This document shows positions 4,259 through 6,530 of a DNA stretch of 64,000 nt, in pieces. The stretch spans positions 1,181,001-1,245,000 of the forward strand of contig NZ_CP080025.1 of the NCBI RefSeq assembly GCF_020463795.1, given 5' to 3'. How positions within the stretch are numbered: position 1 is the first letter of the stretch; every line of letters begins with the position of its first letter. Made by a program: the position numbers and the translations under genes. This DNA is from Echinicola marina. GTDB lineage: Bacteria; Bacteroidota; Bacteroidia; Cytophagales; Cyclobacteriaceae. A model generated the notes under the pieces. That model did not search any database. It worked only from the letters and a program-made list of their open reading frames with translations, and was not told where the DNA came from.

Positions 4259-4426
4259 ATGAACAGGTCTGTAACACCCGAAAAACTACAAAAAGTATTG
4301 CAAGAAAATGGCCATAAAATCAACTTAGACGAATCAAAGAAAACTTTGGATTTTATGTATAAAATTACTAAATTAGTTGTTTATCAGATATTTAAAGTAG
4401 ATGAAGATCGCAGACCTTTATATTAG
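4259..4426 (+). CDS. Small ORF overlapping the recombinase start
   Basis: A 55-codon frame from ATG at 4259 to TAG at 4424-4426. The product begins MNRSVTPEKLQKVLQENGHKI and continues with an LDESKKTLDFMYKITKLVV segment, a helical amphipathic pattern. Its last 26 bases overlap the recombinase start at 4401 in another frame, so the two may be translationally coupled. I recall short proteins with a TPEK...G..I...E...LDF.YK pattern near Bacteroidetes mobile genes, but cannot verify that here. Function unknown. Confidence 0.6.
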   Translation: MNRSVTPEKLQKVLQENGHKINLDESKKTLDFMYKITKLVVYQIFKVDEDRRPLY

Positions 4427-5963
4427 GGTAAGTACAGATGAACAGGCCGACAAAGGATACTCCCAAAGGTACCAGGAAGAGGTGTTGCGGAAGTATTGCG
4501 AATTTCAAAATATTCAGGTGGGACGTGTCATCTTTGAAGACTATTCAGCCCGGACGTTTGATCGTCCCGAGTGGCAAAAGCTTCTTGCCCAAATTAGAAA
4601 ACGGCGCACCAGTACCAACATGATCCTCTTTACCAAGTGGGACCGCTTTAGCCGGAATACCGGCGATGCTTACCTGATGATTTCTACACTTACCAAACTG
4701 GGGATCGACATCCAGGCCATCGAACAGCCCCTCGACCTGAGCATACCGGAACAAAAAATGATGCTGGCCTTTTATCTGGCTGCCCCGGAAGTTGAGAATG
4801 ACCGACGGGCGCTCAACACCTTACAGGGAATGCGGCGGGCAAAAAAGGAAGGGCGATATATGGGGACAGCACCAATTGGATATATCAATACCCGGGATGA
4901 ATATGGCAATAAGATCATTGCTCAAAAAGAACCCCAGGCGTCCCTGGTGAAATGGGCCTTTGAAAAAATAGCCGAAGATCAGCTGGCCGCTGACCAGATC
5001 CGTAAGCTGGTCAACAAAAAAGGACTGTCCATCAGCAGGGGACAATTCTGGTATATGATCAGAAATCCAATCTATTACGGAAAGATCAAAATAAAGGCAT
5101 TCAAAGAGGAAGAAGAGCACCTGGTGGAAGGTAAGCACGAAGGTATAATTTCTGAAGTCTTGTTCAATGATGTGCAAGACGTCCTGGAAGGACGAAAACG
5201 CAAAAAACGCAAACGGACTGTAAAGGTCATTTCCCACGAGAAGTTCCCCCTCCGGGGATTTCTGGTTTGCCATAAATGCGGCAGACCTCTCACCGGAAGT
5301 GCCTCCAAAAGCTCGAAGGGCGGGTATTATCATTACTACCATTGCTTGTCTTCCTGTGGCGTAAGGTTCCGAACGGAAGTCGCAAATAAAGCAGTAAGGA
5401 AAGAACTATTCAAATATAAAGCCCAGGAAAATATACTCGATATCTATAAAGACTGTATTCGGGATGTTTACTGTGAATTAACTTCCAGTAGTCATAAAAC
5501 CAAAAAACAGTATATAGAGGAGATTGAAAGACTCGAGAAGATGATATCCAAGGCCAGGAACCTGCTTATCGAAGGAAGTATGGAAGCCGATGACTTTGCC
5601 GCAGTAAAGAGAGAGTCACAGGAAAAGATCAAAAAGCTGGAAAATAAGCTGACAACCCTCAATGAACAAAAGTCGAACCATTTACCCAAGTTAAAACAGA
5701 CCTTACAGTCTGTATGTCAGTTAGTTAACATATATGATACTTTGGAGGTAAAAGAGAAGAGACAGGTAGTGGGTTCGATATTTCCCCAAAAACTGGTGTT
5801 TGACGGCCAAAAATGTCGAACCCCGTATGTTAACCAGATTGCCCTTTATATCTACACTGTAAATCAGTCAGTTACAAAAAATAAAAACCGAAAAAAAATT
5901 GATTTTTCTCGGTTTTTCAATGAAGTAGCCTCGCTAGGAATCGAACCTAGATCTAAAGTTTAG
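4401..5963 (+). CDS. Large serine recombinase (site-specific integrase)
   Basis: A 520-residue large serine recombinase that would cut and rejoin DNA at att sites. The resolvase domain holds the nucleophile S11 in YIRVSTDEQ and the DRFSRN motif at 81-86. The Recombinase domain spans about 155-275, and a zinc ribbon uses C290, C293, C315 and C319. A coiled coil covers roughly 370-425. The last ~20 codons are suspect: they read through the hairpin at 5883-5917 and into the antisense of a tRNA-Arg gene, giving the tail SLGIEPRSKV that is typical of translated tRNA. The stop TAG lies in the tRNA anticodon arm. This places the right junction of the element at the tRNA. Confidence 0.93.
   Translation: MKIADLYIRVSTDEQADKGYSQRYQEEVLRKYCEFQNIQVGRVIFEDYSARTFDRPEWQKLLAQIRKRRTSTNMILFTKWDRFSRNTGDAYLMISTLTKLGIDIQAIEQPLDLSIPEQKMMLAFYLAAPEVENDRRALNTLQGMRRAKKEGRYMGTAPIGYINTRDEYGNKIIAQKEPQASLVKWAFEKIAEDQLAADQIRKLVNKKGLSISRGQFWYMIRNPIYYGKIKIKAFKEEEEHLVEGKHEGIISEVLFNDVQDVLEGRKRKKRKRTVKVISHEKFPLRGFLVCHKCGRPLTGSASKSSKGGYYHYYHCLSSCGVRFRTEVANKAVRKELFKYKAQENILDIYKDCIRDVYCELTSSSHKTKKQYIEEIERLEKMISKARNLLIEGSMEADDFAAVKRESQEKIKKLENKLTTLNEQKSNHLPKLKQTLQSVCQLVNIYDTLEVKEKRQVVGSIFPQKLVFDGQKCRTPYVNQIALYIYTVNQSVTKNKNRKKIDFSRFFNEVASLGIEPRSKV
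5883..5917 (-). terminator. Terminator downstream of tRNA-Arg
   Basis: AAAAACCG at 5883-5890 pairs with CGGTTTTT at 5910-5917. On the minus strand this hairpin begins nine bases after the 3' end of the tRNA and ends in a U run, as expected for an intrinsic terminator. It lies inside the 3' end of the recombinase frame and could also stop that transcript. Confidence 0.6.
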
Positions 5964-5997
5964 GAAACTTCTATTCTATCCATTGAACTACGAGGCC
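5926..5997 (-). tRNA. tRNA-Arg (anticodon CCU)
   Basis: The reverse complement folds as a 72-nt cloverleaf: acceptor GGCCTCG with CGAGGCT (one G-U pair), D stem GTTC/GAAT, anticodon stem GAAGT/ACTTT around loop TTCCTAA, and T arm CTAGG-TTCGATT-CCTAG with discriminator A. The anticodon is CCU, reading AGG. No encoded CCA. The 3' half overlaps the recombinase ORF, and a broken copy of the 5' half lies 280 bases upstream on the same strand. Confidence 0.93.
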
Positions 5998-5999
5998 AT
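5964..5999 (-). repeat. Direct repeat covering tRNA-Arg 5' half
   Basis: These 36 bases (tRNA 5' half plus two upstream bases) recur at 6257-6264 and 6285-6312, split there by a 20-bp insertion. Identity stops after tRNA position 34, between the first two anticodon bases. The recombinase stop codon abuts the repeat at 5961-5963. The repeat may be an att-type site or the scar of the GIY-YIG unit insertion. Confidence 0.7.
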
Positions 6000-6006
6000 A
6001 TAGATA

Positions 6007-6239
6007 TTACAAATTTTTTAATTTTTCTTTGCCAATTCCAGACTTCCAGTATTTCTCCCTTTCTCTTGCAATCACTCTGGATTCTGCTGCTTCTTTATAA
6101 ATTAACTTCCAGGGCACATACCCTTTTGTTGATTTCGTTCTACCTGCATTATGCTCCCTCAATCTCCTTCCAAGATCTCCTGTAAAGCCAATTAAACCCT
6201 TCCATCGACCAAGCTTTTAATTGCATAAACTGTATACAT
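6007..6239 (-). pseudogene. GIY-YIG nuclease family protein, frameshifted
   Basis: The minus strand encodes a small GIY-YIG nuclease: MYTVYAIKSLVDGRV, then after a frameshift IGFTGDLGRRLREHNAGR, TKGYVPWKLIYKEAA and ESRVIAREREKYWKSG to a TAA at 6007-6009. The VYAI and IGFTG strands, the Arg-rich helix and the ERE-x-YWKS helix with its metal-binding Glu are all present, about 78 residues, the usual size for the YhbQ-like family. One base is missing near 6191-6197 (GTT-TA-ATT where GTT-TAT-ATT is expected), which breaks the YIG motif. The unit sits exactly between the intact tRNA-Arg and the broken tRNA copy. Catalytic activity would need the frame restored. Confidence 0.8.
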
Positions 6240-6256
6240 AAATTATCACAGTCTTT

Positions 6257-6310
6257 GAAACTTCCCTGCCTACCGGCAGGCAGGTATTCTATCCATTGAA
6301 CTACGAGGCC
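6257..6310 (-). pseudogene. Truncated tRNA-Arg copy with palindrome insertion
   Basis: Bases 6285-6310 match tRNA-Arg positions 1-26 and 6257-6264 match positions 27-34, after which similarity ends inside the anticodon. A 20-bp palindrome at 6265-6284 separates the two parts at the junction of the D and anticodon arms. It cannot make a tRNA. Its upstream DNA may hold the ancestral tRNA promoter. Confidence 0.8.
6265..6284. repeat. 20-bp palindrome inserted in tRNA copy
   Basis: CCTGCCTACCGGCAGGCAGG is a near-perfect palindrome (one mismatch pair). Removing it restores the exact tRNA sequence of the neighbouring intact gene, so it is a clean insertion without an obvious target duplication. 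No second copy was found by eye in the window. Confidence 0.75.
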
Positions 6311-6444
6311 ATTTTACAATACGTTTGCAGCTTTGTATAGATGAATTTTCCACCAAAGCAATAAATCAAGGAGAAAGCTCCCTTTTATTTCGAGCCGCAA
6401 TTTAAAACATATTTTTTCTATTCCGCAAATATTCCTAGCCTAAC

Positions 6445-6476
6445 TTGTTCTTTTCAAGATAAATCCGCTATCTTTG
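6445..6476 (+). promoter_or_regulatory. Promoter of rpsP operon
   Basis: TTG at 6445-6447 and TATCTTTG at 6469-6476 with a 21-base spacer match the Bacteroidetes housekeeping promoter pattern. It lies 55 bases before the rpsP start at 6531, giving a leader of about 45-50 bases. Confidence 0.7.
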
Positions 6477-6530
6477 CATTCCAAATTTACGATGGACGGG
6501 ATCCATCAATTAACTAAATATCAATATACT

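What the first reader, a model, noticed from the sequence alone, without database searches (positions are those of the whole stretch)
5964..6312. GIY-YIG unit bracketed by an intact tRNA-Arg and a broken copy of its 5' half
Seen: tRNA-Arg(CCU) is intact at 5926-5997; upstream on the same strand lies a small GIY-YIG nuclease frame, and beyond it a copy of the tRNA 5' half that stops after position 34, inside the anticodon. Known: GIY-YIG proteins include homing endonucleases, and tRNA-Arg(CCU) anticodon loops host group I introns in some Proteobacteria. Inference: a minimal mobile unit, only about 280 bp, may insert at the anticodon and rebuild the tRNA with its own 5' half, leaving the old half behind. 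That would be a compact tRNA-targeting homing element.
Basis: partly seen in the sequence, partly recalled or inferred. Interest (0 to 1): 0.72.

Follow-up and report, generated by a model that had tools for sequence, protein, structure and literature searches.

The report
Tiny nuclease elements nested in tRNAs
In many bacteria a roughly 300-letter DNA unit with a tiny cutting-enzyme gene sits between a working tRNA gene and a hairpin-broken partial copy of it; it looks like a minimal mobile element, and the copy in this genome has lost its enzyme.

Summary
The arrangement recurs widely. Of 80 related GIY-YIG loci from a protein-based scan, 62 have a tRNA gene within 100 bp, always on the same strand (random probes in the same loci: 0.63%). 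Two mirror-image layouts occur: tRNA 5' fragment-GIY-intact tRNA, or intact tRNA-GIY-tRNA 3' fragment. Most displaced fragments carry clean hairpin inserts at loops or stem borders. At this site, 11 genomes of the genus include exact empty sites, single units and a tandem array. The proteins are under purifying selection and track the class of tRNA beside them. Best reading: a minimal, GIY-YIG-driven, tRNA-nesting mobile unit that leaves the tRNA intact. DNA cutting, mobility and the hairpins' role are inferred. Ten searches of a partial library found no description. Nearest in logic: phage SegB and fungal mitochondrial mobile ORFs.

The parts
5925..5997 (-). intact tRNA-Arg (anticodon CCT)
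   Evidence: ARAGORN; Rfam RF00005; identical to the tRNA of empty-site relative G009
6007..6239 (-). GIY-YIG gene, frameshifted (pseudogene) in this genome; open in G001, G007 and G004
   Evidence: PF01541 37.9 bits with an internal TAA; frames; open relatives; G001 and G004 proteins scored
6257..6264 (-). tRNA nt 27-34 (GAAGTTTC) of the displaced copy, resuming after the palindrome
   Evidence: sequence; repeat D2
6265..6284 (.). 20-bp palindrome CCTGCCTACCGGCAGGCAGG between tRNA nt 26 and 27, no tRNA base lost
   Evidence: the same junction in L056, L057 and L059
6285..6310 (-). displaced tRNA-Arg 5' copy, nt 1-26, on the rpsP side
   Evidence: 28-bp exact repeat (26 bases searched genome-wide); comparison with empty-site relatives

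Best explanation
A minimal mobile unit of about 300-370 bp nests at tRNA genes. It consists of a bare GIY-YIG nuclease gene (about 80 aa) flanked on one side by the intact tRNA and on the other by a duplicated, displaced part of that tRNA. SHOWN (by sequence): two mirror-image layouts, same-strand adjacency, empty, single and tandem states at one locus, purifying selection on the nuclease, clean hairpin inserts at cloverleaf loops or stem borders in most displaced copies, and clustering of the proteins by tRNA class. INFERRED: the nuclease cuts the tRNA gene, or the cruciform it can form, in the D-arm/anticodon region (layout D) or T-loop region (layout U). Repair of the break copies the unit in beside the tRNA and duplicates the host's own tRNA half, so the tRNA keeps working. 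The flanking direct repeats then let the unit multiply in tandem or drop out cleanly. The hairpin inserts mark repaired break sites and/or make the displaced half uncuttable and non-functional. The window holds a dead copy.
For: Adjacency: 62 of 80 loci with a tRNA within 100 bp, all 63 such tRNAs on the GIY strand, against 72 of 11,489 random probes in the same loci. Second set (30 best loci of 148 Bacteroidota genomes, one from the own genome; may overlap the first set): 25 of 30 with a tRNA within 150 bp, all same strand, 21 of 30 with a significant displaced copy. Displaced copies: 59 of 68 loci beyond shuffles (29 D, 30 U), 45 of 59 with a hairpin insert, 68 of 68 inserts with no tRNA base lost, 53 of 55 hairpin inserts outside stems where 34.8 were expected. 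Empty, single and array states at the rpsP locus. Arrays: about 8 copies of 364 bp in G111, 3 in G189 (two sites) and G133. dN/dS 0.06-0.16 in the six unsaturated pairs between loci or genomes, pN/pS 0.15-0.18 in the three saturated pairs. Class II against class I tRNA host: 2 changes on the tree, shuffled mean 21.5. PF01541 54.7-64.6 bits in 5 proteins; Y4, Y15, G17, R25, H29, E61 in 75-76 of 76 proteins. Precedent: the free-standing GIY-YIG enzyme SegB cuts within tRNA genes, motif RAWTSGAAC, and drives tandem amplification (PMC13096335, passages); on the other strand that motif is T-loop-like, and 21 of 33 U inserts fall inside it or a looser form, 6.3 expected.
Against: No cutting or movement has been shown. 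The intact tRNA is identical in the occupied and empty genomes compared, so a nuclease that cuts the tRNA gene should also cut its own host; no sequence-based immunity is visible. The protein is a bare catalytic domain with no obvious DNA-binding part. In this genus the pattern could be old vertical inheritance with repeated clean loss. The 3' flanks of the occupied/empty pairs G007/G008, G001/G009, G000/G009 and G004/G006 differ (88-90 of 175-180); only G004/G010 agree there. Nine of 68 loci lack a significant displaced copy, 14 of 59 displaced copies lack a passing hairpin insert, and 12 of 80 loci had no tRNA in range. The palindrome also lies away from tRNAs: 23 of 28 loci. The strict SegB motif is commoner in D tRNAs (24 of 36) than in U tRNAs (11 of 32), where the inserts hit it. 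The tree is weakly resolved (8 of 80 inner branches starred), shuffles do not allow for relatedness, and phylum labels also cluster (16 changes, shuffled 19.9).
Confidence: 0.6

Rival explanations
1. A host-serving or domesticated tRNA-dosage device: as with phage SegB, the nuclease breaks DNA at tRNA genes to promote tandem amplification or repair of tRNA loci, for example under attack by tRNA-cutting toxins or defences, and is kept because it helps the host.
For: Strong purifying selection, matches in 92 of 148 Bacteroidota genomes (includes some longer GIY proteins), tandem arrays, SegB precedent.
Against: The arrays read (G004; G111) multiply the GIY gene and a broken tRNA part, not intact tRNAs. 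Patchy presence: at the rpsP locus 4 of 11 genomes of the genus have GIY-bearing units, 6 are empty and G005 looks like a remnant.
Confidence: 0.15
2. Ordinary unequal recombination and drift: a GIY gene once landed beside a tRNA, tandem duplication and deletion made the fragments, and dispersed palindromes hit the dispensable copies at random.
For: Palindromes of this type are dispersed in some genomes; direct repeats invite duplication.
Against: Two mirror layouts in many phyla; single GIY genes flanked by two tRNA parts; 0 tRNA bases lost in 68 of 68 inserts and 30 of 32 distinct classes outside stems where 19.3 were expected; GIY proteins cluster by tRNA class.
Confidence: 0.12
3. The hairpins, not the nuclease, are the mobile agent: REP-like palindromes insert into exposed loops of tRNA genes (IS200-like single-strand chemistry), only dispensable copies survive, and GIY genes are passengers or hairpin resolvases.
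For: Clean insertion without tRNA base loss at loops and several hairpins in some copies; 25 of 27 palindrome-bearing genomes have a GIY match against 67 of 121 others, Fisher p 1.6e-4, kinship ignored.
Against: In this genome the palindrome is rare: 3 places within 2 mismatches, and the tRNA-Val hairpin has one other match with 2-3 mismatches. Hairpin sequences differ between lineages while their places recur.
Confidence: 0.08
4. The broken copy is an attachment site of the adjacent serine-recombinase element (a conventional tRNA-targeting integrative element), and the GIY remnant is incidental.
For: A large serine recombinase abuts the tRNA 3' side (4401-5963), also in G003, G004 and G010.
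Against: G001 and G007 have the GIY unit without the recombinase in the stretch seen; G003 and G010 have the recombinase without the unit. The repeat has no third copy in the genome.
Confidence: 0.03

Closest known systems
SegB and other free-standing GIY-YIG homing endonucleases of T-even phages (PMC13096335; passages read)
   Same: Free-standing GIY-YIG nuclease often beside tRNA genes of many isotypes; SegB cuts within tRNA genes and drives tandem amplification by recombination
   Different: Here: cellular genomes, bare catalytic domain of about 80 aa, same-strand nesting with a displaced, usually hairpin-split tRNA part in two mirror layouts; one scan of viral contigs confirmed no relative
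Fungal mitochondrial mobile ORFs (Allomyces atp6; Glomus atp6, atp9, cox2, nad3; PMC3630166, passages read)
   Same: Endonuclease gene inserted in an essential gene with a duplicated gene end, so that the gene stays intact and the native end is displaced
   Different: Protein-coding targets; the Glomus atp6 ORF is LAGLIDADG; the duplicated ends there are divergent (63.5% identity in Glomus atp6), whereas here displaced and intact tRNA parts match; no hairpin-split end appears in the passages read
UPF0213 single-domain GIY-YIG proteins (1ywl, 1zg2) and SLX1
   Same: Best PDB sequence matches: 2.5e-7 and 1.9e-6 for UPF0213; SLX1 6.4e-4
   Different: Their gene neighbourhoods were not examined; compared by sequence only
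Group I introns with homing endonucleases in bacterial tRNA genes (PMC3984707, passages)
   Same: tRNA genes as targets; GIY-YIG among the enzyme families
   Different: No intron: the tRNA is uninterrupted and no Rfam group I match was found at 5800-6500

Membership tests
Homing endonuclease gene (free-standing GIY-YIG) | GIY-YIG catalytic domain with conserved active-site residues | tested here: met
   PF01541 54.7-64.6 bits in 5 proteins; Y4, Y15, G17, R25, H29, E61 in 75-76 of 76; that these are the GIY-YIG active-site residues is recalled. The window's own copy is frameshifted.
Homing endonuclease gene (free-standing GIY-YIG) | Present at a site that is empty in close relatives | tested here: met
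   G007 against G008: 211/216 of the 5' flank, identical tRNA; 3' flanks differ
Homing endonuclease gene (free-standing GIY-YIG) | Site-specific cleavage of the empty allele and copying into it | not testable with these tools
   needs biochemistry
Homing endonuclease gene (free-standing GIY-YIG) | Occupied allele resists cleavage | tested here: inconclusive
   By sequence only: the intact tRNA is identical in the occupied and empty genomes compared, so no sequence-based immunity is visible
Fungal-type mobile ORF | Endonuclease ORF plus duplicated target-gene end, with the native end displaced | tested here: met
   59 of 68 loci have a significant displaced copy
Fungal-type mobile ORF | Replacement end comes from a divergent donor | tested here: not met
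   Acceptor strands identical in 25 of 26 (D) and 25 of 28 (U)
Group I intron | Self-splicing intron interrupting the tRNA | tested here: not met
   Uninterrupted tRNA; no Rfam group I match in 5800-6500
tRNA-targeting integrative element | Integrase-bearing element bounded by att repeats | tested here: not met
   No integrase between the repeats; the neighbouring serine recombinase occurs independently of the unit
REP/RAYT palindrome system | Dispersed palindromes linked to a REP-associated Y1 transposase | tested here: inconclusive
   Palindrome in 27 of 148 genomes; 19 Y1_Tnp matches in G000, several with identical scores like IS copies; linkage to palindromes not examined

The most novel reading that the evidence does not exclude
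A categorically new, phylum-crossing class of minimal mobile element: a bare GIY-YIG domain that reads tRNA genes by shape (extruded cloverleaf or hairpin loops) rather than by a long DNA site. It duplicates the host's own tRNA half as its integration scar and fastens a hairpin into the displaced half, which silences that half and shields it from cutting, so it can nest at essential tRNAs in either polarity and stack in tandem without harming them.
Probability: 0.3. Interest if true: 0.92.

Novelty: new variant of a known kind. Interest (0 to 1): 0.8.

Why it matters
If right, a very small mobile unit has spread through Bacteroidota, Balneolota, Ignavibacteriota, candidate phyla and others beside and within one of the most conserved gene classes without breaking it. 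It would account for many GIY-YIG genes found beside tRNAs and for many broken tRNA copies, give a compact model for how selfish nucleases coexist with essential targets, and parallel in cells the phage SegB-tRNA link published in 2026. It also poses a testable puzzle: how an element whose target stays intact avoids cutting itself.

Tried and rejected
Rejected: att duplication by the neighbouring serine recombinase (no third copy of the repeat; unit and recombinase occur independently). Group I intron. Simple 'half copy' without insertion (one search showed the resumption after the palindrome). Phage vehicle: 37 pattern hits in viral contigs, 0 confirmed. Palindrome as private to the unit: 23 of 28 pattern loci have no tRNA in the locus, 27 of 28 no GIY. 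IS200-type transposase as the palindrome mover: genes counted, link not examined. Led nowhere: paper searches for the palindrome sequence and for GIY-YIG with tRNA terms in bacteria (one search listed 15 of 134). Searches (wrong frame; help text) gave nothing used. Structure prediction was not run.

Dropped or set by hand: the 12 of 80 loci with no same-strand tRNA in range are left out (several show hairpin-split tRNA pieces by eye, uncounted). Inserts over 60 nt are left out. In one search only displaced copies reaching the tRNA end were used (26 of 29 D, 28 of 30 U). The tree has 83 of the 86 proteins assembled (3 too short before a stop, among them L122 and L131); 17 of its tRNA labels were set by hand, and 4 rows had no label. 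The conservation count uses 76 of 80 proteins. The downstream 'tRNA' of L099, counted as both sides, is itself a hairpin-split copy.

Full report
1. The site. On the minus strand, reading away from rpsP, the window has: tRNA-Arg(CCT) nt 1-26 (6310-6285), a 20-bp palindrome (6284-6265), tRNA nt 27-34 (6264-6257), a GIY-YIG gene (6239-6007), and the intact tRNA-Arg (5997-5925). The repeat occurs only twice in the genome. The GIY-YIG gene is frameshifted here but open in G001, G007 and G004, where it codes for 77-81 aa; the G001 and G004 proteins match PF01541 over nearly their whole length.

2. Own genome. Of 10 PF01541 matches, the six small ones (L005, L006, L007, L010, L012, L013) belong to tRNA neighbourhoods: five have a tRNA gene in their 3-kb locus (L006 and L012 share one tRNA-Val site), and L013 has none but carries a copy of the tRNA-Leu tail about 1.9 kb from L005. 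The other four (L004, L008, L009, L011) have no tRNA in their loci. The tRNA-Val and tRNA-Met sites also show a displaced, hairpin-interrupted 3' part of the tRNA; directly behind the tRNA-Leu unit no significant displaced copy was found (L164).

3. Same locus in relatives. rpsP was sought in 59 genomes (58 matched); 30 loci were fetched, and in all 11 genomes of the window's genus tRNA-Arg(CCT) lies upstream of rpsP. The genus name Echinicola is inferred: the G001 protein is 100% identical to one of Echinicola salinicaeni (L056). GIY-bearing units: G000 (dead), G001, G007, and G004 with two complete units plus a leading fragment. Empty: G002, G003, G006, G008, G009, G010. G005 has a hairpin-split 5' fragment with no GIY between, and a GIY frame that ends early downstream of the tRNA. 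Best empty-site pair: G007 and G008, 5' flank 211/216 identical up to the tRNA, 328 bp extra between the copies, tRNA identical, 3' flanks different (89/180). For G004 against G010 the 3' flanks agree (141/151); for the other three pairs compared they do not. Outside the genus, G031 has the split fragment without a GIY gene seen.

4. Generality. A scan of the genome collection with an alignment of five GIY proteins confirmed 109 places and kept 80 loci in many phyla. ARAGORN finds a tRNA within 100 bp in 62 of 80 (34 downstream, 27 upstream, 1 both), and all 63 such tRNAs are on the GIY strand. Random probes in the same loci, away from the GIY gene: 72 of 11,489. In a second set, the 30 best loci from 148 Bacteroidota genomes (one from the own genome; overlap with the first set not checked), 25 have a tRNA within 150 bp, all same strand, and 21 a significant displaced copy. 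92 of the 148 genomes, in 62 of 83 genera, have a match; some of these are longer GIY proteins.

5. Two mirror layouts. D: 5' part of the tRNA - GIY - intact tRNA. U: intact tRNA - often a terminator-like stretch - GIY - 3' part of the tRNA. A displaced copy beyond shuffles was seen in 27 of 28 U loci in a first test (L119 not), and in 59 of 68 loci with a tRNA in range in a second (29 D, 30 U).

6. Hairpins. Fifty-three of the 59 displaced copies have a clean insert of 12-60 nt, and 45 a hairpin that beats shuffles; 14 have no passing hairpin. All 68 inserts lose no tRNA base. Typical D places are after nt 8, 14-16, 21, 23 and 26; U places cluster at the T-stem/T-loop border. The commonest sequence resembles CCTGYCTRCCGRCAGGYAGR, but several other lineages, candidate phyla among them, have different hairpins. 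The 20-mer is present in 27 of 148 Bacteroidota genomes, with no match of the reversed control in the rows listed; 23 of 28 such loci have no tRNA. 25 of these 27 genomes have a GIY match against 67 of 121 others (Fisher p 1.6e-4, kinship ignored).

7. Arrays. Thirteen of 80 loci hold two or more GIY genes: L076 has its second on the other strand, and L092, L103 and L126 have a tRNA between, so at most nine are simple tandems. G111 has about eight units of 364 bp (TRF 7.9 copies, 91% match); G189 has three at each of two sites (323 and 317 bp, 100%) and G133 three (345 bp, 97%). The G111 units that I read carry a hairpin-interrupted tRNA 3' part.

8. The protein. Nearest solved structures: UPF0213 (2.5e-7, 1.9e-6), SLX1 and the I-TevI catalytic domain. 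dN/dS: 0.06-0.16 in six unsaturated pairs between loci or genomes (one with dS 2.6), 0.38 between two G004 array copies, dS saturated in three pairs (pN/pS 0.15-0.18). On a weakly resolved tree of 83 proteins (8 of 80 inner branches starred), host tRNA class (Leu/Ser against others) changes 2 times (shuffled mean 21.5), isotype 17 (30.3), layout 16 (26.6) and phylum 16 (19.9); each was as low in 0 of 500 shuffles. One tRNA-Ala(GGC) clade spans metagenome-assembled genomes of three phyla; contamination cannot be excluded. One paper reports GIY-YIG genes among those passed from Patescibacteria to other bacteria (PMC12455944, one passage). No relative was confirmed in viral contigs.

9. Whose half is duplicated? 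The 7-nt acceptor strand of the displaced copy equals that of the adjacent intact tRNA in 25 of 26 D and 25 of 28 U loci, while only 25 of 104 (D) and 5 of 46 (U) pairs of loci with the same tRNA species share a strand. So the duplicated half is the host's own, or has been homogenised since; an imported divergent half, as in fungal mobile ORFs, is not seen.

10. Mechanism. The best model is a GIY-YIG nuclease that breaks tRNA genes, with repair copying the unit in beside the tRNA. SegB of phage T6 is the nearest worked example: purified SegB cuts within tRNA genes, its motif is RAWTSGAAC, and it drives recombination-dependent tandem amplification of a tRNA segment (PMC13096335, passages). On the other strand this motif is T-loop-like (my reading); 21 of 33 U inserts fall inside the motif or a looser form, 6.3 expected, in 20 of the 26 U loci with inserts. 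Against this, the strict motif is present in only 11 of 32 U tRNAs and in 24 of 36 D tRNAs, whose inserts lie elsewhere. Fungal mobile ORFs show the same insertion-with-duplication logic (PMC3630166, passages). Not explained: self-immunity, recognition by a bare domain, the origin of the hairpins, and whether they are break scars, shields or selected silencers.

11. Literature. Ten searches of the held library gave no paper whose listing describes this architecture in cells; one search was aimed at the fungal case, and one search listed only 15 of 134 papers. Most subscription papers are missing from that library, so prior description cannot be excluded.

Noticed in passing
window 4401-5963 (+): A large serine recombinase abuts the tRNA-Arg 3' side; its reading frame runs on into the tRNA gene on the other strand. 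Similar DNA borders the tRNA in G003, G004 and G010 but was not seen in the stretches of the other seven genomes of the genus, so it marks a separate mobile element at this tRNA's 3' side.
   Followed up: partly
L016 (G000:C1:407022-407041): Another palindrome in what looks by eye like a tRNA-Ser 5' fragment just upstream of a tRNA-Ser-like gene, no GIY gene noticed: a possible unit remnant.
   Followed up: no
L040 (G036), about 370-580 bp upstream of rpsP: By eye, a second tRNA-Arg-like copy (CCG type) behind tRNA-Arg(CCT), carrying several large hairpin inserts.
   Followed up: no
L071, L073, L082, L090 (downstream of GIY): The 20-nt insert CCTGTCTACCGACAGGTAGA can by eye form two alternative hairpins and recurs with identical letters beside different tRNAs and in different genomes.
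   Followed up: no
L115, L118, L127: Closely related tRNA-Ala(GGC) units in metagenome-assembled genomes labelled Thermodesulfobacteriota, Nitrospirota and Pseudomonadota: either cross-phylum transfer or binning error.
   Followed up: partly
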